A stretch of 48,132 nucleotides of DNA from an uncultured Bacteroidales bacterium (GTDB taxonomy: Bacteria; Bacteroidota; Bacteroidia; Bacteroidales; UBA932). Below the pieces are notes generated by a model. That model did no database searches. It worked only from the letters and a program-made list of their open reading frames with translations, and was not told the origin of the DNA. The translations under genes and the position numbers were made by a program. Positions 20,981 through 43,892 of the stretch are shown here, piece by piece (position 1 is the stretch's first letter; each line of letters opens with the position of its first letter). The stretch spans positions 1-48,132 of the forward strand of contig ONEX01000023.1 in NCBI GenBank assembly GCA_900316955.1, written 5' to 3'.

Positions 20981-20996
20981 ACAATTCTCTTTCGTG

Positions 20997-24247: not shown

Positions 24248-26055
24248 TACCAACCGGGATTCTGCTGCCACTTGTTCCCCGTAAGCGTCAGGAGGCGCTG
24301 CTGGAACGGAAGCAGGTAGTCTCTGTTTTCCTTGAACTTGTATCCGCCGCTCATCGTGCCCGGAGGGATGGGGATGATGTAGCGCCGGGCATCGCCGGGC
24401 ACACCGGTGAGGAACAGGTTGTTCCCGGAATCCTGGTCATAGACCAGTTCGCTGAAATTGTCCCGCAGGGTCGGGAGGTTGCTGCCCGTGAAAAGGGCTC
24501 CTTCGGGCGTCCAGTTCACCAACAGGACATCGGCTGCGGCCCAACGGGCGATATCGTAGAAGCGGCGGCCTTCCAGGGCCTGTTCCACGCGGCGCTCACG
24601 ACGGACTGCCTGGATGTACTTGTTCAGGCTCCGGAACGGATAATCGGCTTCGGTGTTGTACTCGCGGTCGAAATCCATCGCCGGCATGCCCACGCGGTCG
24701 CGGAGCGGCTTCAAGGCAGCGATGATCCGGGATTCGTTGCCGGCGCCGTCCAGCTCGGCCAGTGCTTCGGCGTAGTTCAGCAGGACATCGGCATAGCGTA
24801 CCTGGATGGCCGGCGTAGCACCCTTGTATTCCGCTTCCAGATTTCCGGTATAGTCGATCTGGACGTGCTTGAGGATGGCATAGCCTGTCGTGTTGTGATG
24901 GTGGCCTTCGGCAAAGAGCGGAGGTGCCGGCATTCCTTCCGGCATGTCCGGACGCAGGACCTGGCCGGGCATGGCGACGGTCTGGGCGAGGCGAGGGTCA
25001 CGCACCGTGGGCAGAAGCTCCTGTCCGTAAACGACCTGCGCGGCTTCCCGCTCGGCCTTGGTGTAAGGTCTTCCGTCGATGGACAGGTAGTCGTTCACCA
25101 GGGAAGAAGTGACACCGACGCCACCGCCGCCCTTGTTCAGATAGCGGTCCACGTTGTTGCCCACGAGGTCTCCGTCGTAACGCTTGTACCAGAGCACTTC
25201 CTTGTTGTTGTCCAGATTCGTGGTCTGGAACACGACCCGGTAGTCGTCGTTGGTCTTTCCCGTGTTGTGGATGGCCCATACGCCACGGTCCATGACGGCT
25301 TTGGCGGCTTCGGCCGCGGTCCGCAGATAGGACTGGATCTTGTCATCGGTGACGGTCTTGTCGTAGAAGGCGTCGTTCTTGGCCTTGTGGTATTTTTCCC
25401 ACGTGCCTTCGAACAGGGCGACCTCGCTTTTCAGCGCGCGGGCGACATCGCGGTGGACGCGCATCGTGGCGGCGCTGTTCTGTTCATTGAGGAGGCTGAT
25501 GGCCTCATCCAGGTCCTCCAGGATGAAGTCGGTCACGGCCGTGCGTGAGTCTTGGCCCACCTGCATGGCTTCCAGGTCCGGATTCAGCGGTTCCTTCACG
25601 ATGGCGACCCCGCCATAATCCTTGAGCAGCTGATAATAGTACCAGGCGCGGAAATAGTAGGCCTCGCCGATGAGCTGGTTGTAGTTGCCCGTCTTGTCGC
25701 AGTTGTCCTTGTTGTTCAGCAGGAAATTGACATTGCGGATGCGGGTATAGGCGCTCAGGGAAACGGCGTTGCCGATGGAAAGGGCGCCGTTGATGCGGGC
25801 GACCGGTGCCGAAGCGGCCATGTTGTCGCTATAGGTGTCCGATCCAGCGATATGGTTGCCGCCGCCCATGCCGAAATCCTGTGTGCGGACGGCTGTCTCG
25901 TAAAACTGGTTGATGTAATTCTGGATTTCACCGGTGGACCGGAACGGGTTATTCGTGGAAAGCACGCCTTCCGGGTCCTTGTCCAGCTTGAAGCAGGCCG
26001 TTGCGGCCGTCATGATGGCCAGTACAGTCAGTATATTGCGTAGTTTCATGATCAT
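24247..26055 (-). CDS. SusD/RagB family glycan-binding outer-membrane lipoprotein
   Basis: Surface lipoprotein that binds glycan and forms the lid of its SusC partner. The 602-residue product has a lipoprotein signal (TAATAC, Cys21 from this start). A second ATG two codons later (26049) is an equally good start. The N-terminal SusD-like domain contains NVNFLLNNKDNC and the QLIGEAYYFRAWYYYQLLKD helix typical of the TPR core. The C-terminal half has LLNYAEALAEL and the closing GNKWQQNPGW. It begins 7 bases after susC and ends overlapping the sulfatase start. Confidence 0.95.
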   Translation of the reverse strand: MIMKLRNILTVLAIMTAATACFKLDKDPEGVLSTNNPFRSTGEIQNYINQFYETAVRTQDFGMGGGNHIAGSDTYSDNMAASAPVARINGALSIGNAVSLSAYTRIRNVNFLLNNKDNCDKTGNYNQLIGEAYYFRAWYYYQLLKDYGGVAIVKEPLNPDLEAMQVGQDSRTAVTDFILEDLDEAISLLNEQNSAATMRVHRDVARALKSEVALFEGTWEKYHKAKNDAFYDKTVTDDKIQSYLRTAAEAAKAVMDRGVWAIHNTGKTNDDYRVVFQTTNLDNNKEVLWYKRYDGDLVGNNVDRYLNKGGGGVGVTSSLVNDYLSIDGRPYTKAEREAAQVVYGQELLPTVRDPRLAQTVAMPGQVLRPDMPEGMPAPPLFAEGHHHNTTGYAILKHVQIDYTGNLEAEYKGATPAIQVRYADVLLNYAEALAELDGAGNESRIIAALKPLRDRVGMPAMDFDREYNTEADYPFRSLNKYIQAVRRERRVEQALEGRRFYDIARWAAADVLLVNWTPEGALFTGSNLPTLRDNFSELVYDQDSGNNLFLTGVPGDARRYIIPIPPGTMSGGYKFKENRDYLLPFQQRLLTLTGNKWQQNPGW

Positions 26056-26062
26056 GGAGCGT

Positions 26063-29000
26063 TTAGAAGTTGACGACGATACCTACGGAAACGGTCTTGT
26101 TCATCGGATAGCTCTTACCGGCGTCTGAAGCGCCACGGTTGGCATTACCGCCGTTATAGGAATTATAGGTGAAGATGGCTTCCGGATCGAAGATCGTGGA
26201 CAGTTTGGTGAAAGTCAGGAGATTTTCTCCCGTCACGTACAACTGGGCCTTGCTCAGGCCGATTTTGCCGATCAACGACTGCGGAAGGTCATAGGACAGG
26301 GTGACGGTCTTCAGGCGGAGGTATGCGGCATTCTGCAGGTAACGGTCGCTGCACTGCTTCTGCTTGCTCTGGTAGGTGCCCACGCCGCCGGCGTTGTGGA
26401 TGTACGGTTTGGGATAATAGGCGTTGGGATTGTCTTCCCGCCAGTAGTCCATGTGCTCCTTGAGCACGGTCACCTGGGCATAAGGTCCGAAGCCCCAGAA
26501 ATAGAGGGAGCTCGAAGGGTCATAGTCGCGCTTGCCCACGCCCTGGAACAGGAAGTTCAGGCCGATACCCTTCCACCAGACGGATCCGTTGATCGTGTAG
26601 TTGTAGCGGGGAGTGGTGTTGCCGATAACGGTGAAGTCTCCCATGTCACCCAGGGTATTGCTGCCCTTGTTGATCTTGCCGTCCCCGTTCAGGTCGATGT
26701 ATTTCACATCGCCGGGCGTCCACTTCGTCGCGCTGATGAAGGAGTGGTCCAAGGCATTGAAGGCATCCGCCTCGGCCTGGTTCTGGATGAGGCCGTCTGC
26801 CCGGTATCCCCAGATCTCGCCGACGCTCTTCCCCTCATACCAGCTGCCGGCAGGATCGGTTCCGGTCGGGTTGGAATACTTGGTGACGACGGCCGTGGCG
26901 TCCGACACGGAACCGCCGATGGAGTAGTTGAAGTCACGTCCGGCGTGGCCCCGGTAGTTGATGGCGAATTCCCAACCACGGTTACGCATGTTCGCGTTGT
27001 TGGTCTGGGGCGCGCTGGCACCGAAGATGTCCGGATAGTCTTCGCCCGGGCCCAGCATGTCGCGCGTGTCGCGCTGGAACAGGTCGAAGGAGCCGGTGAG
27101 GGCGTTCCCGAAGAAGCCGAAATCCAGACCGACATTCTGGTTCAACACCTTTTCCCAGGTGGTGAGAGGATTCACCACGCCGGGAGCCTGGGTGTAGGAA
27201 TGGCGTCCGTCGGAGTAAATGTAACTGCCCAGACCGGAACTCATGCTCATGGTGGAGGCGAAAGTATAGGTCGCGGCTCCTGCCTGGTTGCCCAGCAGAC
27301 CGTAGGAGGCCCGGAGTTTCAGGTTGGAAAGCCAGCCGGAAGCGGACTGCAGGAACGGTTCCTTGTGAATGTTCCAACCGGCGGAAACGGACGGGAAGAA
27401 GCCCCAGCGGTGGTCGGCGGCGAAACGGGAAGATCCGTCGTAACGGCCGTTCAGTTCCAGCAGATACCGGCCGTCATAGTCGTAATTGATGCGCCCGAAG
27501 TAGCCGCGGGTGGCCCACCCGTAACGGGTATCCGTAATGGTCTGGTCGCCATTGCCCATGGTGACGCTGGGCGTGGCCGTGGTGTAAAGGCCGGTGATGG
27601 CGTTCTTGATGTAGGCGTAGTGGTAGTCCTCTTCCTGATAGCCGGCCAGCAGCGCGAAGTTGCTCTTTTCGCCCAGCGTGAAGGAATAATTGGTGTAGAG
27701 GCTGATGCTCTGGTAGTTGGTGTTCGTATTGGACCGGGTATATTTTCCGTCCTTGGGAATGCCCAGCTCGGAACGTCCGCCCTTGACGGTGGTCACTCCG
27801 TCCATCATGTAGATGTCCGGCGCGATGGCCACGGCTTCGTAATTGTTGACACCCAACCGGTAGGTGTAGTCCAGATTGATGAACCAGTTCTTGACAGGCT
27901 GGATCTGCAGCCCGGGGGTAATGTCCAGACGGTCGCGCTTGGTGGTCGTGTAAGTACCGCTCTGAAGGTAGGGGATCATCGTAAATTCCACATAGTGGCC
28001 ATTGTCATCCATGTAGTGTTTCGTGGAGAACTCCCGGGCCAGGGTGTGGTAGAAGCCATAGCCGATGGCACCGTCCCCGAACGGACTGTCGGTCTGTCCA
28101 TGGACGAATTTGGTGCTGAACATGAGCTTGAGCCAGTCGGTGACCTGGGCTTGCGTGTTGGCATTCACGTTGAAACGCTTGTAGCCCATGTCGGCGAAGC
28201 GCAGCGCACCGTCTTCGTCATACATGCCGCCGCTCACATAGTACTGGACTTTCTTGCTTCCTCCGCGGATGGACAGGTTGTGGTTGTGCTTGAGTGCCCA
28301 GTCCTTGTAGTGGAGCTTGAAGTAGTCGGTGTTGCCGAGGCCTTTTTCCGAGTTTTCGAAGGACGACGGGTTGGCCGTGGGATTGTTGCGGATCTCCGCC
28401 CACGGGTCGGCGGACGGATCTCCGTCGATGAACCGTTGCAGGTCGGCGATCTTTTCGTCGGAATACTTTCGGGGTGCATTGGCATTGGCGGCGCCGTCGT
28501 TCCAGAAATGGGCGAAATCCACGGAACTGGCCATGGTCGGAAGCTTGGTCGGTGCGTTCCATCCGACATTGCCGGAATAGCTGATGACGGGCTTCCCGTC
28601 GGCTCCGCGCTTGGTCGTGACCAGGATGACACCGTAGGCGGCCCGGGCTCCGTAGATGGCGGCGGAGGCGGCGTCCTTGAGGACGGAAATGCTCTCGATA
28701 TCATTGGGGTTGACATCCTGGAGGCTCATCTCGACGCCATCCACGAGGATATAGGGATTGCCGGTATCGCTCAGGTTGCCGCGTCCACGGAGGGTGATGG
28801 TCGTCGCGGCGCCCGGGGTGCCGGCCGCCGTGTTGGAGATGGTCAGGCCGGGAACCATGCCCTGAAGGGCCTGGGCGGCATCCACGACGGGACGCTGGGC
28901 GAAGTCATCTCCCTTGACCTGGGAGACGGCGCCGGTCAGGTTGACTTTCTTCTGGACGCCGTAACCGACGACGACCGTTTCTTCCAGCATCTGCGTATCG

Positions 29001-29299
29001 TTCTGCAGGACCACGTTCAGGGGTCCGCTGTTCCAGGTGATCTCCTGGGTGACATAGCCGATGCAGGAGAAAACGAGGACGTTGCCGGGCCGGACACCGT
29101 TCAAGACGTAGGTGCCGTCGATGTCGGTGACCGTGCCGGTCTGTGTGCCCTTGACGAACACAGAGCCGCCGACGACGGTTTCACCGGATGGATCGGTAAC
29201 CGTTCCCCGGACGGTCTGTGGGCCCTGTGCCAGCACGACGATGGAAGCCATGAGTGCGGCTGTCGCCGACAGGATGGCTTTGCGGAGTGTTTTAAGCAT
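26063..29299 (-). CDS. SusC/RagA family TonB-dependent glycan transporter
   Basis: Outer-membrane barrel importing oligosaccharides with energy from TonB. The 1078-residue protein has a signal peptide (about 1-25), a carboxypeptidase-regulatory-like domain (about 28-105) and the TonB-box-like segment EETVVVGYGVQKKVNLTGAV. A plug domain follows with the LVDGVE and SISVLKDAASAAIYGARAAY signatures, then a long beta-barrel ending in an aromatic C-terminus (TVSVGIVVNF). It is the first gene of the five-gene operon, divergent from the membrane AraC regulator across a 198-base gap that holds operator-like repeats. Confidence 0.96.
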   Translation of the reverse strand: MLKTLRKAILSATAALMASIVVLAQGPQTVRGTVTDPSGETVVGGSVFVKGTQTGTVTDIDGTYVLNGVRPGNVLVFSCIGYVTQEITWNSGPLNVVLQNDTQMLEETVVVGYGVQKKVNLTGAVSQVKGDDFAQRPVVDAAQALQGMVPGLTISNTAAGTPGAATTITLRGRGNLSDTGNPYILVDGVEMSLQDVNPNDIESISVLKDAASAAIYGARAAYGVILVTTKRGADGKPVISYSGNVGWNAPTKLPTMASSVDFAHFWNDGAANANAPRKYSDEKIADLQRFIDGDPSADPWAEIRNNPTANPSSFENSEKGLGNTDYFKLHYKDWALKHNHNLSIRGGSKKVQYYVSGGMYDEDGALRFADMGYKRFNVNANTQAQVTDWLKLMFSTKFVHGQTDSPFGDGAIGYGFYHTLAREFSTKHYMDDNGHYVEFTMIPYLQSGTYTTTKRDRLDITPGLQIQPVKNWFINLDYTYRLGVNNYEAVAIAPDIYMMDGVTTVKGGRSELGIPKDGKYTRSNTNTNYQSISLYTNYSFTLGEKSNFALLAGYQEEDYHYAYIKNAITGLYTTATPSVTMGNGDQTITDTRYGWATRGYFGRINYDYDGRYLLELNGRYDGSSRFAADHRWGFFPSVSAGWNIHKEPFLQSASGWLSNLKLRASYGLLGNQAGAATYTFASTMSMSSGLGSYIYSDGRHSYTQAPGVVNPLTTWEKVLNQNVGLDFGFFGNALTGSFDLFQRDTRDMLGPGEDYPDIFGASAPQTNNANMRNRGWEFAINYRGHAGRDFNYSIGGSVSDATAVVTKYSNPTGTDPAGSWYEGKSVGEIWGYRADGLIQNQAEADAFNALDHSFISATKWTPGDVKYIDLNGDGKINKGSNTLGDMGDFTVIGNTTPRYNYTINGSVWWKGIGLNFLFQGVGKRDYDPSSSLYFWGFGPYAQVTVLKEHMDYWREDNPNAYYPKPYIHNAGGVGTYQSKQKQCSDRYLQNAAYLRLKTVTLSYDLPQSLIGKIGLSKAQLYVTGENLLTFTKLSTIFDPEAIFTYNSYNGGNANRGASDAGKSYPMNKTVSVGIVVNF

Positions 29300-29377: not shown

Positions 29378-29437
29378 TCCGATCTTGTCCGTAAATAGTC
29401 CGATTTCGTCCAAAAATGCGAATTGGACGAATTCGGA
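29378..29437. promoter_or_regulatory. candidate operator: three copies of a 13-base motif
   Basis: TCCGATCTTGTCC (29378-29390) and TCCGATTTCGTCC (29399-29411) are direct repeats exactly 21 bases apart. A third copy, differing from the second at one base, lies inverted at 29425-29437. AraC-family proteins often bind direct half-sites about two helical turns apart, and the gene at 29498 encodes an AraC-type protein. The repeats are seen directly. Their role is inferred. Confidence 0.65.
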
Positions 29438-29441
29438 CGCG

Positions 29442-29449
29442 GATGTTTG
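29442..29449 (+). promoter_or_regulatory. candidate -7 box of the membrane AraC regulator
   Basis: GATGTTTG matches seven of eight TAnnTTTG positions, 49 bases before the start at 29498. The inverted motif copy at 29425-29437 would overlap its -33 to spacer region, which would suit autorepression. Confidence 0.35.
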
Positions 29450-29497
29450 GCTTTTCTCCGGAAAAACGCTAATTTAGCCATTGCAACCACGGCTTTG

Positions 29498-32245
29498 ATG
29501 AAAAACATCCTGCTTCTGCTATTTCTCCTTCCTGCGGTTTGGGTATCGGCCGCGCAGAATTCGCCGTATGCCTATATCCCGATCTCCTTGGAAAACGGCC
29601 TGTCCCAGCCGAATGTCACATCGTTGCTGCTGGACAGCCGGGGCAGTTTGTGGATCGGAACCCGGAACGGGTTGAATCGGATGGACCGGCAGGAGATAAC
29701 GGTCTATACATCCCATGGACACGATGCGGCACACCTGCCGGGGAACGAGATCCGGGACCTGTCCGAAACCGCGGACGGATCGGTCTGGATCCGGACGTCG
29801 CGCGGCATCGCCCGCTATCGCCCCTCCCGGGGCGGATTCGAGACCGTCATGGTGAAACCCTTCTTCTCGTCACTGGCCGTTCCCGACGGAATCCTGTTCG
29901 GAGGTGATGGATGCCTGGCCCGCGTGGCGGAAGACGGAAGTTCCGAGTACCTGTATCCTTTCGGGGAGGGCTCCTGTGTGGGAAAACGGGCTTACCGCAT
30001 CGGACGGATGGTGGCCTTGGAGGGGAGTGAGTTGCTGCTTGGAACGGATGAGATGGGCCTGTTCCGCTACGAGCCCGGCCATCCGGCCGTTCCGTTTACG
30101 CAGGAAGCGTTCCGGCAGGTCATCGCCTTGTACAGAAGCCAGGCGGGGGATATCTTCGTTGCATACGACGGAGATGGTGTCCGGCGTTATTCCCCGGACG
30201 GAACCGAGCTGGCCCATTATACGACCCGTAACAGCGGGCTGACCCATGACTATGTCCAGAGTTTCGCGGAATATGACGGATTCCTCTGGATTGCCACGGA
30301 TGGTGGCGGCATTTCGCTCCTGGACCTCTCTTCCGGCCGCTTTCAGACACTTCGTCACAGCCCTGACGATCCGGCTTGCCTGCCGTCCAACTCGGTGACG
30401 GTGCTTTACCTCGATTCTTCCGGCGTCCTGTGGGCAGGAACCGTCAAACATGGCTTCTTCCAGGTGCGCCAGAACCATATCCGCTCTTTCAGCGGCCCGT
30501 TGTGCGGATTGACGGACAACGCGGTCATCAGCCTGTACCGGGAGGACGACGGCTCGCTCTGGGTCGGAACCGACGGCGGCGGCATCCATCGTTTCGATCC
30601 GGTTTCAGGTCGTTTTACGCCGCTGCCGGGAACCCGTGGCAAAATCCTTTCGCTGGTCGGATTCGATGCCCGGAATCTGCTGGCTTCCATCTATATGGAG
30701 GGCTTTTTCCTGGTGGACAGAGTGACCGGTGCACGGAAACCGTTTACGCTTGTCAATGAGGAAGTGAATCGGCAGGAATGTTTCTGGGGATACCTTCCCC
30801 GTGTGGCGCGCGTGGCTGGTGACAAGCTGTATTTCCTTAGTTATTCCCCCTGGCTCTACGACCTGCGCACCCGGAGCTTCTCTTTGCTCCAGGTGGATGA
30901 CAGCCTGGCCGTCAGCGGTGTCAGGATGGCCTGTTCCGATGGGCGGGAGGCCTTCTTCTATCGGGACAATCAGGTATTGATCGCCGATTTGAAGGAGGAC
31001 AGGATCCGACTGCTTTTCCGTGTGGGGGAGCAGGAGAAAGTGACATCCGTCGCCTATGACGGTGATCGGACCGTGTGGGTGGGGACGGACCGCGGCCTTG
31101 GAAGGTACGACCGCCGCTCGGATACGTATGAACCGGTGGAAACCGGCCTTTTCGACAGCGTGTCGGCTCTGGAATACGCCGGGAACGGACAGCTGTGGAT
31201 CTGCGCCCGCAGCCGGCTGTTCACCTATCTGTGCGAAGGGAACCGCTTCGTTTCCTGGAGCGCTTCGGACGGGTTCCGCCCGAACGACATTAAAATGCTG
31301 TACCAGAACGCCACGAGTCCCGATTACCTGTACATGGGCGGTTCGGACGGGCTGGTGCAGATCAGCCGGGACATCCCGATTCCGGGGCTGGAACCGGTCG
31401 CGGTCTTTCTGGACCAGTTGACGGTGAACGGCCGTCCTGCGCTGTCCGATGTGCAGGGAAACCGGATCCGCGTCCCCTGGAACTATCAGTCCCTTGTCGC
31501 CTCTTTCCAGGTCAAGGACGGCGATGCCTTCCAGCGCAAGTATTTCCGCTACACCGTGGAAGGGACACAGACGCGGACCTTTGAAAGCGACGACGCCCGC
31601 CTGCGGCTTCCCGCCCTGTCGGACGGGACATACCGGATTCTGGTTTCCTGCCTGCAGAAGGGTGGCGATTTTACTGTGCCGGAATGCCTGCTGGAAGTCG
31701 TCGTGCTTCCTCCCTGGTACCGGACCGTATGGTTCCGACTGCTGTTGGCCGCCCTTCTGCTGGCGTCGGCCGCCTGGGGCATCCGCACCGTCACCAAGCG
31801 GCGGGAGCACGAGACCAAGAGTTCCATGGCCCATTTCCTCGAGGAAATGCTGCAAGATACGGAAGAGCGGGAAGATGATACCGCCATCACGCCCGATCCG
31901 GAATTCAAGGCCCGGCTGGATGCCGTCATCCTCCGGCATCTGTCCGATCCCGGCCTGGACGTCCAGTTCCTCACGGAGCAGCTGGCGATGAGCCGGACCC
32001 TCCTGTACGGCAAGGTAAAACAGGTGACAGGACAGGGTGTCAAGGACTATATCAACCGGATACGCATCGAACGGTCCGTGGACCTCCTTCTGCACACGGA
32101 CAAGAATATCAATGAAATCGCCGACGAAGTCGGTTTCGCCTATCCGCGCTACTTCAGTACGTCCTTCAAGAACCTGAAGGGCGTGACTCCGACGCGCTTC
32201 AAGCAGGAGAACCGCTCCTCCTCTAACCCGGAAACAAAACCATAG
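29498..32245 (+). CDS. membrane-spanning sensor: beta-propeller periplasmic domain fused directly to AraC DNA-binding domain
   Basis: The start at 29498 gives a clean signal peptide (MKNILLLLFLLPAVWVSAAQ) and 915 residues. Periplasmic Reg_prop repeats follow (for example LLLDSRGSLWIGTRNGLNR and GSLWVGTDGGGIHRFDP), then a Y_Y_Y-type beta-sandwich. One membrane segment lies at about 742-762. After it comes only a short charged linker, then an AraC HTH domain at about 820-905 (DVQFLTEQLAMSRTLLYGKV, INEIADEVGFAYPRYFST). No HisKA, HATPase or receiver domain is present, unlike standard hybrid two-component systems. It probably senses a glycan and binds DNA at the membrane. GH2 starts 3 bases later. 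Confidence 0.9.
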   Translation: MKNILLLLFLLPAVWVSAAQNSPYAYIPISLENGLSQPNVTSLLLDSRGSLWIGTRNGLNRMDRQEITVYTSHGHDAAHLPGNEIRDLSETADGSVWIRTSRGIARYRPSRGGFETVMVKPFFSSLAVPDGILFGGDGCLARVAEDGSSEYLYPFGEGSCVGKRAYRIGRMVALEGSELLLGTDEMGLFRYEPGHPAVPFTQEAFRQVIALYRSQAGDIFVAYDGDGVRRYSPDGTELAHYTTRNSGLTHDYVQSFAEYDGFLWIATDGGGISLLDLSSGRFQTLRHSPDDPACLPSNSVTVLYLDSSGVLWAGTVKHGFFQVRQNHIRSFSGPLCGLTDNAVISLYREDDGSLWVGTDGGGIHRFDPVSGRFTPLPGTRGKILSLVGFDARNLLASIYMEGFFLVDRVTGARKPFTLVNEEVNRQECFWGYLPRVARVAGDKLYFLSYSPWLYDLRTRSFSLLQVDDSLAVSGVRMACSDGREAFFYRDNQVLIADLKEDRIRLLFRVGEQEKVTSVAYDGDRTVWVGTDRGLGRYDRRSDTYEPVETGLFDSVSALEYAGNGQLWICARSRLFTYLCEGNRFVSWSASDGFRPNDIKMLYQNATSPDYLYMGGSDGLVQISRDIPIPGLEPVAVFLDQLTVNGRPALSDVQGNRIRVPWNYQSLVASFQVKDGDAFQRKYFRYTVEGTQTRTFESDDARLRLPALSDGTYRILVSCLQKGGDFTVPECLLEVVVLPPWYRTVWFRLLLAALLLASAAWGIRTVTKRREHETKSSMAHFLEEMLQDTEEREDDTAITPDPEFKARLDAVILRHLSDPGLDVQFLTEQLAMSRTLLYGKVKQVTGQGVKDYINRIRIERSVDLLLHTDKNINEIADEVGFAYPRYFSTSFKNLKGVTPTRFKQENRSSSNPETKP

Positions 32246-35353
<3,108 letters not shown>

Positions 35354-35371: not shown

Positions 35372-36280
35372 ATGAAACGAATCGCACTCCTCTCCGCCGC
35401 GTGCCTCGTGATGCTGGGCACCGCGTGCAAAAGCGGCCCGGTCGCGCCCGTGGCCAGCCAGTCCAAGGTCGTCGAAGACGGCGGCACCGGTCCCTACAAG
35501 GTGCTGATGCTGGAGGATCCTTCCCTCGAGGCGCACACGATTTTCGCGCCGCAGGACCTGGCACCGTTCGGCAAGAAGAACCCGCTGCCCGTCCTCGTCT
35601 GGGGCAACGGCGCCTGCACCAATTCCCCGTGGGAGCACTACAAGTTCCTGAACGAGATCGCCTCGCACGGCTTCCTCGTGATCGCCACCGGTTACATCCC
35701 GATGGAAGAGAAGCCTTTCCGCGGGCCGATGTCCACCTCCGCGCAGCAGATCGAGTCCATCGACTGGGCCATCGCGCAGAATGCCGACAAGAACAGCCCG
35801 TACTACGGCCGGATCGACGTGGACCACATCGCCGCGGCCGGCATGTCCTGCGGTGGCCTGCAGACGCTGGACAACGCCACGGACCCGCGCCTCAAAACCA
35901 TCATGATCTGCAACAGCGGCCTGTTCATCAACCCGGGCACGGCCGTCCCGAACATGCCGATGCCGGCCAAGGAGCGCCTCCAGGAAATCACCGTCCCGGT
36001 GATCTACATCCTGGGCGGCCCCGAGGACATCGCCTATGAGAATGGCATGGACGACTTCCACCGCCTCGTGAAGGTCCCGGCCTTCGCCGCGAACTACCCG
36101 GTGGGCCACGGCGGCACCTACCGCCAGGACCACGGCGGCGAGTTCACCGTCCCGGCCCTCGCCTGGCTCCAGTGGCAGTTGAAGGGCGACAAGGAGGCCG
36201 CAAAGCTCTTCCAGGGCGCTGACTGCGGCCTCGCGAACCGCGAAGGCTGGACCGTCGAGAAGAACGGTTTGATCGACTAG
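35372..36280 (+). CDS. alpha/beta hydrolase lipoprotein, putative glycan esterase
   Basis: The 302-residue protein has a lipobox LGTAC (Cys19) and an alpha/beta-hydrolase fold of the cutinase-like or dienelactone-hydrolase-like group. An oxyanion-region strand reads PVLVWGNGACTNSPWEHYKF, the nucleophile elbow is GMSCGG with Ser159, a likely acid lies in GGPEDIAYENG, and a likely His in YPVGHGGTY. The substrate is unknown. It may remove acetyl or other ester groups from the glycan attacked by GH2, 18 bases upstream. It converges with GH43 with a 10-base gap. Confidence 0.75.
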   Translation: MKRIALLSAACLVMLGTACKSGPVAPVASQSKVVEDGGTGPYKVLMLEDPSLEAHTIFAPQDLAPFGKKNPLPVLVWGNGACTNSPWEHYKFLNEIASHGFLVIATGYIPMEEKPFRGPMSTSAQQIESIDWAIAQNADKNSPYYGRIDVDHIAAAGMSCGGLQTLDNATDPRLKTIMICNSGLFINPGTAVPNMPMPAKERLQEITVPVIYILGGPEDIAYENGMDDFHRLVKVPAFAANYPVGHGGTYRQDHGGEFTVPALAWLQWQLKGDKEAAKLFQGADCGLANREGWTVEKNGLID

Positions 36281-36290: not shown

Positions 36291-37331
36291 TTACTTCAAA
36301 TCCACCTTGGGCCAGCCGTCCGGCGTCCAGGTGAGGTCGCAGACGAGCAGTTTCGAGCGATACTCGTACTCGCTGTCGTATCCATGCATGAACATGTAGT
36401 CCTTGCCGGCGAAAGTCACAACTGCACAGTGACCGACGCCGGCATAGTGGCCATTGCCCTTTGCTACGACCGTTCCGCCGCCATCCATCAGGGACACGCC
36501 GTCCTTGTCGATGTACGGGCCCATCACTTTCTCCGAGCGGCCGACCACCACATTGTAGGTGCTGTTCTTGCCACGGCAGCAGAGGTCGTAAGAGACGAAC
36601 AGATAATAGTACTTCCCGTGGCGGAAGATGAAAGGAGCCTCCACGGCGCCGTTGCCCGGGTCGAAGTCCGGCCCGCGCGGATCCCGTTTGATGCCGTCGT
36701 CCTTGCCTGCGATGTCCTTGGTGGTCCCTTCCGGACGGCGGCAGAGCGGATACCACTCCTGCGGCTCGGCCATCTTGGTCATGGTTTCATCCAGCTTGAA
36801 CATCTTGATGCCGCGCCAGAACGAACCGAAGCATAGCCACCCGGTTCCATTCTCGTCCACGATCATGTTCGCGTCGATGGCATTCCATTCGTCCCGTCCC
36901 GGAATGGACTCGACGATCATTCCCTGGTCCTCCCACTTGAAGTCCGGAGACTTGGGGTTGAGGGTCTTGTTCGTCGCGCATCCGATGGCGGAAATGTTGC
37001 GGCCGAATACCGAATAGGAATAATAGAGGTACCAGAGACCGTTGTGGTACTGGATGTCCGGCGCCCAGGGCATCCAGCGGAAACCTTTGTCCGCCGCCCA
37101 CTGGGGGGTCTCGGACAGGACATGCGGTTCAATGCGCCAAGTCTGGAGGTCTTCGGAGGACATGCATCCCAGACCGGTCGTAAAGACATAGTAACGGCCG
37201 TCACAGAAGGCGGCGACGGGATCATGGGCGTCCGGGTATTCGACGACGGTGCCCGGTTCCGGACCGCCCCGCTGAGCGGAGAGGGAGACAGAGAGCAGGA
37301 GTCCCAGGATGGGGAGGATTCGTTTGACCAT
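36291..37331 (-). CDS. glycoside hydrolase family 43, endo-1,5-alpha-L-arabinanase-like
   Basis: The 346-residue secreted enzyme has a signal peptide (LLSVSLSAQ) and a single five-bladed propeller domain with no added binding module. The catalytic triad is visible: Asp37 in AHDPVAAF (general base), Asp153 in IDANMIVDE (pKa modulator) and Glu231 in VEAPFIFRHG (acid). GHCAVV may supply the His found at the calcium site of arabinanases. FRWMPWAPDIQYHNGLWYLY fits the arabinanase subgroup, but GH43 specificity is varied and a xylosidase or arabinofuranosidase role is possible. It is transcribed away from GH54, sharing a 177-base control region. Confidence 0.87.
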   Translation of the reverse strand: MVKRILPILGLLLSVSLSAQRGGPEPGTVVEYPDAHDPVAAFCDGRYYVFTTGLGCMSSEDLQTWRIEPHVLSETPQWAADKGFRWMPWAPDIQYHNGLWYLYYSYSVFGRNISAIGCATNKTLNPKSPDFKWEDQGMIVESIPGRDEWNAIDANMIVDENGTGWLCFGSFWRGIKMFKLDETMTKMAEPQEWYPLCRRPEGTTKDIAGKDDGIKRDPRGPDFDPGNGAVEAPFIFRHGKYYYLFVSYDLCCRGKNSTYNVVVGRSEKVMGPYIDKDGVSLMDGGGTVVAKGNGHYAGVGHCAVVTFAGKDYMFMHGYDSEYEYRSKLLVCDLTWTPDGWPKVDLK

Positions 37332-37359
37332 ATCGGTTTTGTTTATTGTTTAACCGGTG

Positions 37360-37444: not shown

Positions 37445-37465
37445 CCCGAGCCGGGGATGAATCAC

Positions 37466-37473: not shown

Positions 37474-37508
37474 GGTCGGAATCCGAAATCAACTCTAAAT
37501 AATTCCAT

Positions 37509-40500
37509 ATGAAGCACAAAGCACTCCTTTTCGGGGTCCTCGCCCTGGCCCTGGCCACGCCGGCCACCATCGTGGCGGGCATCGCCCTTTCCCAAGGCCC
37601 GGCCCCAATCCCCGCGCGTCCGGAAGGCCCCTGTGACATCTATGCCGCCGGCGGCGCCCCCTGCGTGGCCGCCCACAGTTCCACCCGCGCCCTGTATGCC
37701 TCCTATGAAGGCCCCCTGTACCAGGTGATGCGCCAGTCCGACCGGGCTACGCTGGACATCTGCGTCGTCCCCGCCTCCCCCGGCGATCCGGGCGGCTATG
37801 CCGACGCCGCCGCGCAGGACGAATTCTGCAAGAACACCACCTGCTGGGTCACCGTCCTTTATGACCAGTCCGGCAAGGGCAACCACCTGTATCAGGCTCC
37901 CCGCGGCGCCTTTGTCGGGGCCGCGCTCGGCGGATTCGACACGATGCCCATCGCGGACATGGCCCCCGTCACCCTGATGGGGCATAAAGTCTATGGTCTC
38001 TTCTTCGTGCCGGGCATGGGCCTGCGGCAGAACGACCCGCACGGCACGGCTGTCGACGACCAGGCCGAAGGCCAGTACTGGGTCATCAACGGACACCACT
38101 ACAATTCCGGCTGCTGCTTCGACTATGGCAACGCCGAGACCGACAGCCGCGACGACGGCGACGGCACCATGGAGACCACCTACTACGGCAACCAGCCGCT
38201 GTGGTACCACGGTGACGCTCCGGGTCCTTGGATCATGACCGACCAGGAGAACAACCTCGTGGGATGCGTGAATCCCGATCCGAACGACAAGTATTGCCAG
38301 GGCCTGCCCAGCATCAGCTGGCGCTTCGTGACGGCAACCGCCGATGGCGAACCGCACCACTGGCGCTCCATGGGCGGCAACGCCCAGGGCGGCGAGCTCA
38401 TCACCATGTTCGACGGAACGCGCATCCAGAACGAACGCAACAGCTATGATCCCATGCGCAAGCAGGGTGCCATCGTCCTGGGCAACGGCGGAGACAACAA
38501 CAATTACTCCTCCGGAACCTTCTACGAGGGCGCGATGACCGCGCCGGACACGTTCCCGACCCTCGAGACGAACCAGGCCATCCAGGCCAATGTCGTCGCC
38601 GCCGGCTATGACGTCCAGCGCCTCGCCATCGGCGCTTCCGACAAGACCGCCACCCCGAACGGTCTCCAGACTTTCTCCCCGGGTTCGGTGGGCAACACCA
38701 CCGTCACTTTCGTGAACACCACCAAGGCTCCCATCAACGACCTTGTCCTTTCCATCGACGCGCCCAAGGGCTGGAAAGTCATGGTCCTCGGCAGCAAGGA
38801 GACCGCCAAGAAGGTCGGCTACGATGTCCTCCCCGGCCAGACGGTCGTCGCCAACTTCTCCGTCACCGCCGGTTCCCGCGAATACAACGGCGACCTCACG
38901 GCGAAAGCCACCTGGACCGCTCCGGACGGCAAGGCCTGGTCCGAAACCGCCGTGGAGAAGGTGCGCAATGTGGCCCCGGTGAAGATCAACGAGTTCCGTG
39001 TCGCCGACGGCGTGAACATGACCAACTCCTTCATTGAACTGTACAACGCTTCGGACAAGGAAGTGGATATCGCCGGCTGGGAGATCGTCCAGCATGGGGC
39101 CACCCTTCCTTACTTCTCCACCATCAAGATTCCCGGAGGCACCAAGCTCGCTCCGAAGGACTTCTATCTGCTGGGCCTCTCCACCTCCGGCCTGGCCGTG
39201 GACGCCGCCAAGGGAGAAAAGACCCTGTACGTCCGCGACGTGACCGGCATCCGGGCCGGTGACGAAATCACCATCGGCACCGGCGCCGCCGCCGAGAAGC
39301 ACAAGGTGGCCGCCGTCGTCAAGCATGAGCCGGAACCCGTGGAGGAAGGTGGCGACTACATGCGCCAGTACGGCCGTGTGATGAACGCCCTGGGCACCCC
39401 GACCACCCTGTGGCAGCCGCTCCCGGACGGCCCGGTGATCACCATCCCGAAGGGTTCCACCAGCGTTCCCGTGGACAATACGACCGGTTTCAAGGTGGGC
39501 GCCAAGATGGCCATCGGCTACGGGGCGAAGTATCCCGCTCCCGTCGCGGACTTCGAGAAATACGAGGTCGTGACCGTCACCAAGGTAGGAAAGCCCGGCA
39601 CCCAGGCCTGGCTCGCCTATGACGCCAAGCCCGGCGACCGCAACATCAAGGTTTCCTCCGTCGAGAACATCAGCGTCGGCGATGTCATCCGCCTGGACAT
39701 CGACAGCAAGGGACACGGCGTGGAATACGTGAAGGTCAAGAAGGTGGGCACCGCCTCCACCAAGAGCCCGGGCCGCGGCCCCATGACCCTGGAAGAGGCC
39801 GGCACCGGCCTGACGCTCACCAAGCCCCTGAAGTACGCCCACTCCGCCAATATGCCGTTCAGCTGCAACGGCACGGGCATCAGCTTCACGCCGGCAACGA
39901 AGTTCGACCATTCCAGCAACGAGCCCGTCCTCGCGCTCGTCTATGAAATCGTCCTCGAAGAACCGCTCCAGCGCGACCATCCGGTCGACGAGGTCATCTG
40001 CGACCCGGCCGTCAAGACCGCCGGCTACCAGGGAGAAATCGCTCCGGACCAGCTGTTCGGCGGCCCGGCCCTCGCCCGCATGGGCAACATGACGCTGTAT
40101 GATGCCGAAGGCCGCGTGGTGGATTGCCTCAACTGGGGCACCGTCGTGGATCCGATGCTCGCCGAAGGTTTCCAGGGCCAGTCCGGCCTCGAGGAGTACG
40201 GCAACTACATCCACCTCAAGGTGGAGAACGAGAACCGGGGCTGGGGCCGCGACCCGAACGCGCCCACCCTGCTGAACCCGAACCTGAGCGCCGGCCGCTA
40301 CCCGGACGGCAGCGACACCGACGACAACATGGTGGACTTCAAGTTCCAGCTTTCCACGAACCTCTACGAGCCCGCCAAGGCCGGCTCCAAGAAGATTACC
40401 ATCACCGAGACGGAAGGTCTCCGCATCGGCCACCACTTCAACATCGGCTATGGGGATGAGATGGAGAGCGTGATGGTCGCGACCATTGACGGGCCGCGCA

Positions 40501-40655
40501 CGCTCACCAGCAAGGTGAAGTTCGGCGAGTTCACCCGCGAGATCAAGACCACGGTCATCGACCTCACCCTGGGCGCTCCGCTCAAGAAGGACCACATCGC
40601 CGGCGCCTCCATCACCGACAACTTCCCGACCCCGGGCTACGCAAACCGTTTCTAA
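37509..40655 (+). CDS. GH54 alpha-L-arabinofuranosidase, AbfB-like catalytic core with NEW3-like and split lamin-tail-like domains
   Basis: The 1048-residue secreted protein has a signal peptide at about 1-30. Residues 39-370 match the GH54 arabinofuranosidase catalytic domain best known from Aspergillus AbfB: GPCDIYAAGGAPCVAAHSST, the vicinal pair Cys202-Cys203 in CCFDYGNAE, the nucleophile Glu247 in WIMTDQENN and the acid/base Asp329 in GNGGDNNN. No CBM42 follows. Instead there is a NEW3-like domain (about 388-485) and a lamin-tail-like segment starting VKINEFRVAD (491). Beta-repeats come next, then a segment resembling the end of a lamin-tail domain (MTLYDAEGRVVDCLNWG, 861-877) and one more repeat. 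Two carboxylesterase genes follow in the same operon. Confidence 0.9.
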   Translation: MKHKALLFGVLALALATPATIVAGIALSQGPAPIPARPEGPCDIYAAGGAPCVAAHSSTRALYASYEGPLYQVMRQSDRATLDICVVPASPGDPGGYADAAAQDEFCKNTTCWVTVLYDQSGKGNHLYQAPRGAFVGAALGGFDTMPIADMAPVTLMGHKVYGLFFVPGMGLRQNDPHGTAVDDQAEGQYWVINGHHYNSGCCFDYGNAETDSRDDGDGTMETTYYGNQPLWYHGDAPGPWIMTDQENNLVGCVNPDPNDKYCQGLPSISWRFVTATADGEPHHWRSMGGNAQGGELITMFDGTRIQNERNSYDPMRKQGAIVLGNGGDNNNYSSGTFYEGAMTAPDTFPTLETNQAIQANVVAAGYDVQRLAIGASDKTATPNGLQTFSPGSVGNTTVTFVNTTKAPINDLVLSIDAPKGWKVMVLGSKETAKKVGYDVLPGQTVVANFSVTAGSREYNGDLTAKATWTAPDGKAWSETAVEKVRNVAPVKINEFRVADGVNMTNSFIELYNASDKEVDIAGWEIVQHGATLPYFSTIKIPGGTKLAPKDFYLLGLSTSGLAVDAAKGEKTLYVRDVTGIRAGDEITIGTGAAAEKHKVAAVVKHEPEPVEEGGDYMRQYGRVMNALGTPTTLWQPLPDGPVITIPKGSTSVPVDNTTGFKVGAKMAIGYGAKYPAPVADFEKYEVVTVTKVGKPGTQAWLAYDAKPGDRNIKVSSVENISVGDVIRLDIDSKGHGVEYVKVKKVGTASTKSPGRGPMTLEEAGTGLTLTKPLKYAHSANMPFSCNGTGISFTPATKFDHSSNEPVLALVYEIVLEEPLQRDHPVDEVICDPAVKTAGYQGEIAPDQLFGGPALARMGNMTLYDAEGRVVDCLNWGTVVDPMLAEGFQGQSGLEEYGNYIHLKVENENRGWGRDPNAPTLLNPNLSAGRYPDGSDTDDNMVDFKFQLSTNLYEPAKAGSKKITITETEGLRIGHHFNIGYGDEMESVMVATIDGPRTLTSKVKFGEFTREIKTTVIDLTLGAPLKKDHIAGASITDNFPTPGYANRF
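39201..40625 (+). repeat. degenerate protein-coding beta-repeats in the GH54 tail
   Basis: Four units share a pattern like G-x-x-x-I-x-V-(x)4-G-(I/F)-x-x-G-D-x-I-x-I-G, often ending in a stretch like LTL-x-x-P-L-x-x-x-H. They lie at about residues 565-602, 641-694, 709-747 (with its tail at 766-781) and 958-993 (with its tail at 1017-1035). They are too diverged to be a DNA repeat and are seen only in the protein. Confidence 0.6.
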
Positions 40656-40667: not shown

Positions 40668-42266
40668 ATGAACACACGAATGACCATCCTGTTCGCAGCG
40701 GCCGCGCTCCTGGCGGCCGCCTGCGGACAGCAGGCTGCTCAGCAGCCGGCGCACCCCGGCCCCATTACGGCCGGTGAGCACACCCGCGTCAACACCACTT
40801 ACGGCACCGTCGAGGGCTACCTGGACGATGACGTGTACACCTTCAAGGGCATCCAGTATGCCAAGGCCGAGCGTTTCATGCCGCCCCAGGCTCCCGACAG
40901 GATCGAGGGGGTAAGGATGTGCAAACTATATGGACCCAAGGCCATGCAGGGCCAGGACCTCGTCTGGCGGGACAACACCCAGCGTGACTACAATTTCGGC
41001 AACCAGTTCATCATGGAGCCGATGAGCGAGGAAGCCTGTCTGGTGCTCAATGTATGGACGAAGGGAATCAATGACGGCAAGAAGCGTCCCGTATTCCTAT
41101 GGATCCACGGCGGCGGTTATTCCACCGGCTCCGGTCACGATCTGGACTGCTACGAGGGCCGCTCCCTCGCCGACAAGGGGGATATCGTCACCATCACCAT
41201 CAACCATCGGCTGAATGTCCTCGGATATATCGACCTCACCGCCCTGGGCGGCAAGTACGCGAACTCGGTGAACCTGGGCATGCAGGACATCGTGAAGGCC
41301 CTCGAGTGGGTTCATGACAATATCGAAAAATTCGGGGGCGACCCGAATTGCGTGACCATCGGCGGACAGTCCGGCGGCGGCGGAAAGGTTTCCACGCTGC
41401 TGGCCATGCCTTCCGCGAAGGGTCTCTTCCACCGGGCCGTCGTCCAGAGCGGTTCCACGCTTCGCGTGGGCGACCAGGAGTATTCCCGCAAATTGGGGCT
41501 CGCCACCCTCGCGGAGCTGGGCGTAAAGCCTGCCCAGGCGGAGGCGAAGCTTCCGACCTTCAGTTACGAGGAACTCGTTGCCGCCGGCAACCGGGCATCC
41601 CAGAAAACCGCAGCCGCCGGTATGCGGGGCGGGTTCGGCCCGGTCATGGACGGCAAGATTGTCGCCGACCAGCCGTTCGATCCGGAAGCGTCCGAGATCA
41701 ACCGGGGCATCCCGATGCTCATCGGCACCGATTTCAATGAGTTCACCTTTGACATCTCCCCGGAGAAGACGCTGGACGAGGTCAAGGCCGCCCTTACCGA
41801 AAGGATGGGCGAAGAAAAGGCCGCCCAGTTCATGGAGGAATTCCCGAAAGCCTTCCCGGACGAAGAGCCCAAGGCGATGCTGTACATGGACACCCGTTTC
41901 CGCGCCGGCGCGATGCAGCAGGCCGCCGCGAAGAGCCGTCAGGGCGGGGCGAACGCCTATTTCTACGAGTTCACCTGGAAGCCGGAGAACAACGTCCTGG
42001 GCGCCAGCCACGGTATGGAGCTCCCGTTCATGTTCAACAATGTGGCAGTCCAGCGCGAGATGACCGGGTCCTCCGAGAGCGCTTACAAACTCCAGGAAGT
42101 CATCAGCAACTACTGGCTCGCGTTCATCAAGACCGGCGACCCGAACGTCCCCGGACAGCCTGTCTGGGAACCTTACAACGAGGAAACCGGTCCTTGCATG
42201 ATTCTGGACAACACTTGCGGAATCCGCTACAACCACGACAAGAAACTGCTGGAAATTGCGCAATAG
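40668..42266 (+). CDS. type-B carboxylesterase, lipoprotein (first of tandem pair)
   Basis: The 532-residue protein has a lipobox LAAAC (Cys19) and the carboxylesterase fold (PF00135): oxyanion loop FLWIHGGGYSTGS, nucleophile elbow GGQSGGGG with Ser235, acid Glu358 in GTDFNEF and His448 in GASHGMELPF. Natural substrates could be acetyl or feruloyl esters on arabinose-containing polymers, judged only from the GH54 and GH43 neighbours. It begins 12 bases after GH54 and is followed at 15 bases by a close paralogue. Confidence 0.9.
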   Translation: MNTRMTILFAAAALLAAACGQQAAQQPAHPGPITAGEHTRVNTTYGTVEGYLDDDVYTFKGIQYAKAERFMPPQAPDRIEGVRMCKLYGPKAMQGQDLVWRDNTQRDYNFGNQFIMEPMSEEACLVLNVWTKGINDGKKRPVFLWIHGGGYSTGSGHDLDCYEGRSLADKGDIVTITINHRLNVLGYIDLTALGGKYANSVNLGMQDIVKALEWVHDNIEKFGGDPNCVTIGGQSGGGGKVSTLLAMPSAKGLFHRAVVQSGSTLRVGDQEYSRKLGLATLAELGVKPAQAEAKLPTFSYEELVAAGNRASQKTAAAGMRGGFGPVMDGKIVADQPFDPEASEINRGIPMLIGTDFNEFTFDISPEKTLDEVKAALTERMGEEKAAQFMEEFPKAFPDEEPKAMLYMDTRFRAGAMQQAAAKSRQGGANAYFYEFTWKPENNVLGASHGMELPFMFNNVAVQREMTGSSESAYKLQEVISNYWLAFIKTGDPNVPGQPVWEPYNEETGPCMILDNTCGIRYNHDKKLLEIAQ

Positions 42267-42281: not shown

Positions 42282-43892
42282 ATGAGAAACTTCCTTTCCA
42301 TCTCCGCGTCCCTGTGCGCAGCCGCCCTGCTGCTCGGCGGCTGCACATCCAGGGAACCATCGGCGTCACAGCCGGCCCACCCCGGTCCCATTACCGCTGG
42401 CGAGCACACCCGTGTCAACACGACCTACGGCACCGTCGAGGGTTATCTGGACGACGACGTCTACACCTTCAAAGGCATCCGGTACGCCAAGGCCGGGCGA
42501 TTCATGCCGCCGCAGGCCCCCGACAAGTTCGAAGGCGTGCGGATGTGCAAGCTTTACGGCCCCAAGGCGCCGCAGTCGAACACCCTTGTATGGAGAGACG
42601 ACACCCAGCGTGACTACAGCTTCGGCAACCAGTTCAACATCGAGGCGATGAGCGAGGAGGACTGCCTGGTCCTCAACGTTTGGACGAAGGGTATCCATGA
42701 CGGCAAGAAGCGTCCGGTCTTCTTCTGGATGCACGGCGGCGGTTTCAATGACGGTTCCGCCATCGACCTGGACTGCTATGAAGGACGCGCCCTGGCCGAC
42801 AAAGGGGACATTGTCACCGTGAGCATCAACCATCGGCTCAATGTCCTGGGATATATGGACTTGAGCTTTCTCGGCGGCCCGTACGCGAACTCGGTGAACC
42901 TGGGCATGCAGGACATCGTGAAGGCCCTGGAATGGGTCCGGGACAACATCGAGAAGTTCGGCGGCGACCCGGACCGGGTCACGGTTGCCGGGCAGTCCGG
43001 CGGAGCCGGCAAGGTGACGACCCTCCAGGCTATGCCTTCCGCCAAGGGCCTTTTCAAGCAGGGAATCATCCAAAGCGGATCTTTCCGCCGGATTACCAGC
43101 GGAGAATATGGGCGGAAGCTGGGCCAGACTTTCCTGGCGGAACTGGGCGTGAAACCCGCCGAGGCGGAATCCCGGCTTGGGACATTTACCTACCAGGAGC
43201 TGCGGGAGGCCGGCAACCGGGCCATCGCCCGGATGACGGCCGCGCCCGGAGAACGGGGTGGATTCTGCCCGTTCCTGGATGGGAACGTCATCACGGAACA
43301 GCCTTATGACCCGGAAACCGCCACCCTTTCCCGGAACGTGCCCGTCATGATCGGCAGCAACTTCAACGAGTTTTTCTTCGACATCAGTCCGGAGAAGACG
43401 GAGGAGGAGGTCCTGACGACCCTCCAGGAGCGCATGGGAGAAGAAAAGGCCCGGCAATTCATGGATGAGTTCCGGAAGGTCTATCCCGACAAGGCGCCCA
43501 AGGACATGCTGTATGTCGATACCCGCGTGCGCAACAACACGCTCCGGATCGCCGACGCCAAGAGCGGCATGGGCGAGAAAGTGTATGTCTATCACTTCCA
43601 GTGGATCCCCGAGAACAATGTGCTGGGTGCCAGTCACGGCATGGAGCTGCCGTTCATGTTCAATAACGTCGCCCGCCAGCGCGAGATGACGGGCTCCTCC
43701 GAAAGCGCCTATAAGCTCGCCGACATCGTGAGCGATTACTGGCTCTCCTTCATCAAGACCGGCGACCCGAACACGAAGGGCCGGCCTGTGTGGGAACCCT
43801 ACACCCCGGACACCGGCGCCAGCATGGTGTTGGACAACACCTGTGGCACCCGGCGCGGCCACGACAGCATCCTGGTCGGGCTGGCACAGTAA
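42282..43892 (+). CDS. type-B carboxylesterase, lipoprotein (second of tandem pair)
   Basis: The 536-residue paralogue of the preceding gene has a different signal peptide (lipobox LGGC, Cys21) but a nearly identical start of the mature domain (HPGPITAGEHTRVNTTYGTV). Its triad is intact: Ser near 239 in GQSGGAGK, Glu near 363 in GSNFNEF and His near 453 in GASHGMELPF. Differences cluster around the region after the nucleophile and in the 300-330 loop, which may change substrate preference. It is the last gene of the GH54 operon and converges on the hybrid sensor with a 9-base gap. Confidence 0.9.
   Translation: MRNFLSISASLCAAALLLGGCTSREPSASQPAHPGPITAGEHTRVNTTYGTVEGYLDDDVYTFKGIRYAKAGRFMPPQAPDKFEGVRMCKLYGPKAPQSNTLVWRDDTQRDYSFGNQFNIEAMSEEDCLVLNVWTKGIHDGKKRPVFFWMHGGGFNDGSAIDLDCYEGRALADKGDIVTVSINHRLNVLGYMDLSFLGGPYANSVNLGMQDIVKALEWVRDNIEKFGGDPDRVTVAGQSGGAGKVTTLQAMPSAKGLFKQGIIQSGSFRRITSGEYGRKLGQTFLAELGVKPAEAESRLGTFTYQELREAGNRAIARMTAAPGERGGFCPFLDGNVITEQPYDPETATLSRNVPVMIGSNFNEFFFDISPEKTEEEVLTTLQERMGEEKARQFMDEFRKVYPDKAPKDMLYVDTRVRNNTLRIADAKSGMGEKVYVYHFQWIPENNVLGASHGMELPFMFNNVARQREMTGSSESAYKLADIVSDYWLSFIKTGDPNTKGRPVWEPYTPDTGASMVLDNTCGTRRGHDSILVGLAQ

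What the first reader, a model, noticed from the sequence alone, without database searches (positions are those of the whole stretch)
37623..38618. Fungal-type GH54 arabinofuranosidase core in a Bacteroidota glycan cluster
The catalytic domain keeps the residues known for Aspergillus AbfB: the vicinal cysteines (202-203), the nucleophile Glu (247) and the acid/base Asp (329), plus long stretches close to the fungal sequence as I recall it. GH54 is best known from fungi, while Bacteroidota usually rely on GH43 and GH51 for this activity. Possible transfer between fungi and bacteria in a shared niche, or an under-described bacterial branch, deserves a tree.
Basis: partly seen in the sequence, partly recalled or inferred. 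Interest (0 to 1): 0.75.

Follow-up and report, generated by a model that had tools for sequence, protein, structure and literature searches.

The report
Bacterial GH54 arabinofuranosidase, not fungal transfer
The gene encodes a genuine GH54-type enzyme for clipping arabinose off plant fibre, but its family tree places it in a large bacterial branch, so it does not look like a recent gift from fungi and is largely ordinary.

Summary
ORF 37509-40655 (+, 1048 aa) has a GH54 catalytic domain at aa 41-367 (390 bits), 55% identical to Aspergillus kawachii AbfB; Cys202-203, Glu247 and Asp329 are present. The fungal-transfer reading fails. In a 91-row tree the domain sits in a starred 16-row Bacteroidota set inside a 70-row set (100/100) with Acidobacteriota, Planctomycetota, Verrucomicrobiota, Pseudomonadota and Gemmatimonadota. 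AbfB, the only fungal row, lies outside it, next to an actinobacterial plasmid copy (98/69); grouping AbfB with the 16 Bacteroidota rows is rejected (p-AU 6e-5). Bacterial GH54 groups, some with NEW3 and lamin-tail domains, were in print in 2021 (PMC8155123, passages). The protein lacks the fungal CBM42 and carries NEW3 plus a lamin-tail region apparently interrupted by four related repeats. The neighbouring GH43 resembles endo-1,5-arabinanases, so arabinan is the likeliest substrate (inference). Full-length copies are patchy: 6 of 37 genus genomes, 3 of 344 order genomes. With high identity across phyla this suggests transfer among bacteria. New member of a known kind.

The parts
37509..40655 (+). 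GH54 gene, 1048 aa, ATG start
   Evidence: ORF; Pfam
37509..37628 (+). N-terminal signal-peptide-like hydrophobic segment (aa 1-40), no Cys before aa 42
   Evidence: sequence, (Cys list); no signal-peptide predictor was available
37629..38609 (+). GH54 catalytic domain (aa 41-367)
   Evidence: PF09206 7.1e-117; AbfB 1wd3/6sxt
38112..38117 (+). vicinal cysteines 202-203
   Evidence: 131 of 131 rows
38247..38249 (+). nucleophile Glu247 (AbfB E221)
   Evidence: 131 of 131 rows; title of 6sxr
38493..38495 (+). acid/base Asp329 (AbfB D297, role recalled)
   Evidence: 130 of 131 rows
38265..38297 (+). extra Cys pair 253 and 263, absent in AbfB, possible extra disulfide and marker of the window-type branch
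   Evidence: both in 104 of 106 rows at 68% or more identity to the window, in 0 of 25 others
38676..38912 (+). NEW3 / NPCBM_assoc domain (aa 390-468)
   Evidence: PF10633 2.2e-07, 31.4 bits, cut-off 24.4
38970..39227 (+). first part of lamin tail domain (aa 488-573)
   Evidence: PF00932 4.4e-11, 43.6 bits, cut-off 34.3; lamin A/C 1ifr E 0.021, prob 1.00, 68 columns, rank 4
39195..39326 (+). repeat R1 (aa 563-606)
   Evidence: hhalign 96.5-98.5% to R2-R4; controls
39426..39596 (+). repeat R2 (aa 640-696)
39612..39764 (+). repeat R3 (aa 702-752)
40083..40340 (+). stretch that looks like later lamin-tail strands (aa 859-944)
   Evidence: alignment A2; assignment to the LTD fold is inference, Pfam alone finds nothing in aa 854-1048
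40371..40487 (+). repeat R4 (aa 955-993), inside the 96-residue insertion before the terminal PTPG..N motif
40626..40646 (+). terminal PTPG..N motif (aa 1040-1046)
36291..37331 (-). GH43, endo-1,5-alpha-L-arabinanase-like
   Evidence: PF04616; 4kcb 6.2e-97, 1gyd 2.3e-93
40668..42266 (+). carboxylesterase a
   Evidence: PF00135; 5a2g 2e-90
42282..43892 (+). carboxylesterase b
   Evidence: PF00135
43902..48020 (-). hybrid two-component regulator (Reg_prop, Y_Y_Y, HisKA, HATPase, response regulator, AraC HTH)
35372..36280 (+). small alpha/beta hydrolase
   Evidence: PF12740; 2fx5 2.9e-18
32249..35353 (+). GH2 beta-galactosidase-like
29423..32245 (+). Reg_prop/AraC regulator
19436..29299 (-). SusC, SusD, two sulfatases and GH20; probably a separate block
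   Evidence: beside GH54 in 82 related loci only one sulfatase (L011) and one weak SusC (L081) found

Best explanation
The gene encodes a secreted bacterial GH54 alpha-L-arabinofuranosidase of a widely shared bacterial branch. The catalytic domain removes terminal arabinofuranose with Glu247 as nucleophile and Asp329 as acid/base (retaining mechanism, inferred from AbfB). Its C-terminal NEW3 plus repeat-interrupted lamin-tail region probably acts as a spacer or surface/substrate-contact module in place of the fungal CBM42. With the neighbouring endo-arabinanase-like GH43, two carboxylesterases and a hybrid two-component regulator it forms a small arabinan-degrading cassette. Its patchy presence and high identity across phyla point to gene transfer among bacteria, not from fungi. 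Shown: family, residues, tree position, domain order, neighbours. Inferred: activity, substrate, secretion, role of the C-terminal region, bacterial transfer.
For: PF09206 390 bits; AbfB 55% identity and conserved residues. Tree and AU test. NEW3 and LTD both over cut-off in 6 of 6 other window-type proteins scanned, from Bacteroidota, KSB1, Acidobacteriota, Alphaproteobacteria and Opitutae. An extra Cys pair in 104 of 106 window-type rows and 0 of 25 others. GH43 matches endo-arabinanases. GH43, GH54 and the first esterase recur side by side at 86-94% in L011-L013, the three loci nearest to the window. GC and GC3 of the gene (0.645, 0.87) lie within the range of the other window genes measured (0.592-0.655, 0.734-0.937).
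Against: No assay. NCBIfam's AbnA model is matched by the GH43 far below its cut-off (242 against 480 bits). A GH43 like the window's is found in only 5 of 82 related loci, the esterases in 10 (6 of them only at about 30%), the regulator in 6 (identities; flanks of 8 kb or less), and in L011-L013 the regulator lies on the other side of GH54, so the cassette is local and the substrate may vary. The esterases' substrate is unknown. The AlphaFold model of the catalytic domain is poor. Bacterial transfer rests on one short domain and mostly on MAG contigs, which may be misbinned, and paralogy raises the number of changes.
Confidence: 0.85

Rival explanations
1. Recent transfer of the catalytic core from a fungus (for instance an anaerobic gut fungus) into this Bacteroidota lineage.
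For: 55% identity to a fungal enzyme and the same catalytic residues; patchy presence in the phylum. No gut-fungus sequence could be placed.
Against: Bacterial relatives at 69-97% with titles of at least seven phyla; AbfB lies outside the 83-row bacterial set (100/99) and grouping it with the Bacteroidota is rejected; no CBM42 found.
Confidence: 0.03
2. Vertical descent from an ancestral Bacteroidota or deeper bacterial GH54 with many losses, no transfer.
For: A 16-row starred set of Bacteroidota and own-order rows (100/99); the 20 Acidobacteriota rows need only 2 changes.
Against: The 17 labelled Bacteroidota rows need 5 changes, 3 forced by starred branches, though 3 of the 17 are in the paralogue branch. 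Full-length copies in 0 of 394 other phylum genomes and 2 of 343 other order genomes, so losses would be very many.
Confidence: 0.12
3. The substrate is arabinoxylan or arabinogalactan side chains and not arabinan.
For: GH54 enzymes are reported on several substrates (PMC8155123, passages); GH2 and esterases nearby; the neighbours differ in most related loci.
Against: The GH43 next door, kept in the three nearest loci, is closest to endo-1,5-arabinanases.
Confidence: 0.3

Closest known systems
Aspergillus kawachii AbfB (GH54, PDB 1wd3, 6sxr-t)
   Same: Catalytic domain 55% identical, vicinal cysteines, Glu nucleophile and Asp kept
   Different: AbfB ends in a beta-trefoil CBM42 (PMC6887791, passages); the window protein has NEW3 and a lamin-tail region with repeats, and the Cys pair 253/263
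Bacterial GH54 groups of PMC8155123, above all 'Bacterium I'
   Same: A combination of GH54 with LTD, NPCBM_assoc/NEW3 and RPT1 (and RICIN) is reported there (passages)
   Different: The passages name Acidobacteria, Verrucomicrobia, Proteobacteria and Actinobacteria, not Bacteroidota; no RICIN was found here; insertion of repeats within LTD is not in the passages seen
Second GH54 of the same genome, G000:C12:162027-162980
   Same: GH54, NEW3, LTD below Pfam's cut-off; a GH43 nearby
   Different: 54% identical, in another bacterial set of 13 rows (96/99); terminal insertion absent; no Cys 253/263 (among the 25 others)
Actinobacterial GH54 on plasmids (L096, L097)
   Same: GH54 domain; L096 is 69% identical to AbfB
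   Different: Ricin-type trefoil instead of NEW3/LTD

Membership tests
GH54 alpha-L-arabinofuranosidase | GH54 catalytic domain by curated profile | tested here: met
   PF09206, 390.4 bits, cut-off 25, profile 1-314 of 315
GH54 alpha-L-arabinofuranosidase | Glu nucleophile and Asp acid/base at AbfB E221 and D297 | tested here: met
   Glu247 and Asp329 aligned; E221 from 6sxr title, D297 recalled
GH54 alpha-L-arabinofuranosidase | vicinal cysteines | tested here: met
   Cys202-203, 131 of 131 rows; that they form a disulfide is not tested
GH54 alpha-L-arabinofuranosidase | arabinofuranosidase activity | not testable with these tools
   no assay possible
fungal-type GH54 (AbfB architecture) | C-terminal CBM42 / AbfB domain | tested here: not met
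   behind the catalytic domain only NEW3 and LTD over cut-off (FliMN_C and Alpha_adaptinC2 below it)
recent fungal acquisition | gene groups with fungal GH54 to the exclusion of bacteria | tested here: not met
   one fungal sequence only
lamin tail domain (PF00932) | profile match over the curated cut-off | tested here: met
   43.6 bits, cut-off 34.3, aa 488-573
lamin tail domain (PF00932) | whole lamin-like fold, here split by insertions | tested here: inconclusive
   lamin A/C 1ifr rank 4, E 0.021, 68 columns; phage tail proteins rank above it (0.0032-0.011), nothing at 0.001; no Pfam match in aa 854-1048
polysaccharide utilization locus | GH genes in one unit with a SusC/SusD pair | tested here: inconclusive
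   SusC/D at 24247-29299, but no SusD and one weak SusC (L081) beside GH54 in 82 related loci (flanks 8 kb or less)

The most novel reading that the evidence does not exclude
The C-terminal 560 residues are a lamin-tail fold whose loops have taken up four or more copies of one ~40-residue beta repeat, making a new glycan- or surface-contact module that stands in for CBM42 and has travelled with GH54 through at least seven bacterial phyla.
Probability: 0.35. Interest if true: 0.4.

Novelty: new member of a known kind. Interest (0 to 1): 0.22.

Why it matters
It removes a tempting fungus-to-gut-bacterium transfer story and places gut Bacteroidota GH54 in a branch shared by many phyla. PMC10461819 (section 12 read; other passages) counts 20 characterised enzymes among 1594 GH54 sequences and creates no subfamilies; the text seen does not say whether any belongs to this branch. 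The Cys pair 253/263 gives a simple marker of the branch, and the conserved C-terminal region without CBM42 is a concrete, testable module.

Tried and rejected
Fungal transfer: rejected by tree and AU test. Compositional sign of recent entry: none. Viral carriage: 4 pattern matches in viral contigs, none a relative. Five matches in the phylum sample besides the own genome cover only 78-105 profile positions and are not counted as GH54; so too one, two (G473, G668), one (G1009), one and one. G1034 matches in two pieces in one 704-aa frame; it may be a divergent GH54 and was not counted. Pieces under 280 model positions or 150 bits were left out of the tree, which then dropped 40 rows at 92% identity or more, leaving 91 of 131. 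FliMN_C behind LTD is below Pfam's cut-off in the window but over it in L031; I did not follow it. A lipobox count by regular expression (15 of 96) was too crude to use. Passages found under 'GH54' were GH5 subfamily texts (mostly GH5_4).

Full report
Observation. ORF 37509-40655 on the + strand (1048 aa) carries the GH54 catalytic domain at aa 41-367 (PF09206, 7.1e-117). The best solved relatives are the A. kawachii AbfB entries (about 3e-104); identity over the domain is 55%. A 1143-aa ORF on the other strand (37350-40781) covers the gene; no family was sought for it, and given the high GC3 I take it as a shadow of the coding strand.

Distribution. The same genome has a second GH54. In the genus 6 of 37 genomes have one or two, and 0 of 24 other order members in that sample. 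Full-length copies, centre genome included, were found in 1 of 395 genomes of the phylum, 3 of 344 of the order at 80% completeness or more, 6 of 247 in the phylum of an Acidobacteriaceae strain (L082), 3 of 349 in the phylum of Rhizomicrobium (L080), 2 of 194 in the phylum of an Opitutaceae MAG (L089) and 1 of 199 in the phylum of Aeoliella (L032). The centres were picked because they have it; without them the counts are 0 of 394, 2 of 343, 5 of 246, 2 of 348, 1 of 193 and 0 of 198. None of the 14 control genomes matched.

Tree. After dereplication 91 of 131 rows were used. The window sits in a set of 16 rows (100/99), 10 labelled Bacteroidota and the rest the window and genomes of its genus or order, inside a 70-row multi-phylum set (100/100). 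The own-genome paralogue is in a set of 13 rows (96/99). AbfB pairs with the Streptantibioticus plasmid copy (98/69, not starred) outside the 83 rows (100/99) made of these two sets. The root is a midpoint, for drawing only. Forcing AbfB together with the 16 rows costs 134 log-likelihood units, p-AU 6.12e-05 (the group was named after the tree was seen). Window-type domains from other phyla are 70-81% identical to the window, higher than the 54-55% between the two copies of the own genome. The label Bacteroidota needs 5 changes, 3 forced by starred branches, which suggests transfer among bacteria; paralogy (3 of the 17 labelled rows are in the paralogue set) and misbinned contigs account for an unknown part. 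A Cys pair (253, 263) is in 104 of 106 rows with 68% or more identity to the window, missing in L037 and its duplicate L109, and in 0 of 25 others, AbfB included: a marker of the window-type branch independent of the tree's details.

Architecture. Behind the catalytic domain come NEW3 (aa 390-468) and a lamin tail domain (aa 488-573). Both are over cut-off in 6 of 6 other window-type proteins scanned. In the paralogue set 3 of 4 have NEW3 and 4 of 4 LTD, one below cut-off. Other GH54 proteins scanned differ: ricin-type trefoils in L096, L097 and L128, a below-cut-off BNR repeat in L119, a 3-keto-disaccharide hydrolase-like domain in L121, nothing more in L122. AbfB has CBM42 (PMC6887791, passages). 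Four stretches (aa 563-606, 640-696, 702-752, 955-993) are related repeats by profile comparison: hhalign 96.5-98.5% for all six pairs, against at most 22.9% in 52 comparisons of the repeats with 13 other slices of the same alignment. In the 37 rows aligned 6 of 37 have 5-6 residues between the ...DF and PTPG..N motifs and 31 of 37 have 96-171, that is, an insertion at the domain's end. The AlphaFold model of aa 488-1048 (mean pLDDT 76.9, pTM 0.74) finds lamin A/C (1ifr, E 0.021, probability 1.00, 68 columns) at rank 4, below three phage tail or tailspike proteins at 0.0032-0.011 and with nothing at 0.001 or better. Pfam finds nothing in aa 854-1048 on its own. One lamin-tail fold interrupted by repeats is thus supported but not shown. 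The full-length model (pLDDT 70.9) returns the AbfB structures first (E 1.5e-21, but TM-score 0.23 by query); its catalytic part is of low confidence.

Neighbours. GH43 (36291-37331) is closest to endo-1,5-arabinanases (4kcb 6.2e-97, 1gyd 2.3e-93). Two COesterase genes and a hybrid two-component regulator follow GH54. In L011-L013, the three nearest loci, GH43, GH54 and the first esterase stand in the same order at 86-94%; L012 and L013 add two more esterases (74-90%), L011 instead a sulfatase like the window's second (83%), and the regulator (73-84%) lies upstream, not downstream as in the window. L012 has a further GH43 there. Over 82 related loci, many with short flanks, a GH43 like the window's is found in 5, esterases in 10, the regulator in 6, GH2 in 6, the small hydrolase in 2, SusC in 1, a sulfatase in 1, SusD and GH20 in 0. 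Other loci have other partners, for instance a GH43 with F5/8 domain and a CE2-like esterase in L019. The best reading is a small arabinan-directed cassette in this lineage, with esterases removing acyl or feruloyl groups (inference).

Literature. PMC8155123 (passages) divides GH54 into Fungi and four bacterial groups and reports LTD, NPCBM_assoc, RICIN and RPT1 in its Bacterium I. PMC6071333 (passages) counts 31 GH54 genes in the camel rumen and GH54 among debranching enzymes of Bacteroidetes bins; PMC3368933 (one passage) lists GH54 counts of rumen metagenomes. The listings showed me no paper whose title or abstract start announces a characterised Bacteroidota GH54 or repeats inserted in LTD; most of those papers were not opened, and the library lacks most subscription journals.

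Verdict. A sound observation with an unsupported headline: an ordinary bacterial member of GH54, with an interesting but partly known C-terminal region.

Noticed in passing
L024, L027, L028, L040, L042, L045, L056: 7 of the 80 genome-contig loci carry a window-type and a paralogue-type GH54 within the same 16-17 kb, in Bacteroidota, a Planctomycetota, a Verrucomicrobiota and an unclassified MAG; this may reflect joint use or joint transfer.
   Followed up: partly
L012 and L016; L013 and L015: Two window-type GH54 genes lie on one contig in each of two MAGs (CACYWN010000004.1, JAFSJK010000023.1).
   Followed up: no
L091, L092, L093, L094, L095, L131, L135, L137, L138: Proteins of other genomes match only 74-105 positions of the N-terminal third of the GH54 profile over its cut-off; PF09206 hits alone overcount GH54.
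   Followed up: partly
window 38265-38297: Cys253 and Cys263, absent in AbfB, are both in 104 of 106 window-type rows and in 0 of 25 others.
   Followed up: yes
L045 7857-11238: A window-type GH54 copy is split over two frames: assembly error or a broken gene.
   Followed up: no
L073: The only row without the acid/base Asp (Ala instead), in an ORF of 464 aa that ends soon after the catalytic domain.
   Followed up: no
window 19436-29299: Two sulfatases, GH20 and a SusC/D pair look like a separate sulfated-glycan locus beside the arabinan cassette.
   Followed up: no
L139 11307-14164: The second GH54 of the genome lies next to a GH43 with F5/8 domain and an alpha-L-fucosidase.
   Followed up: partly
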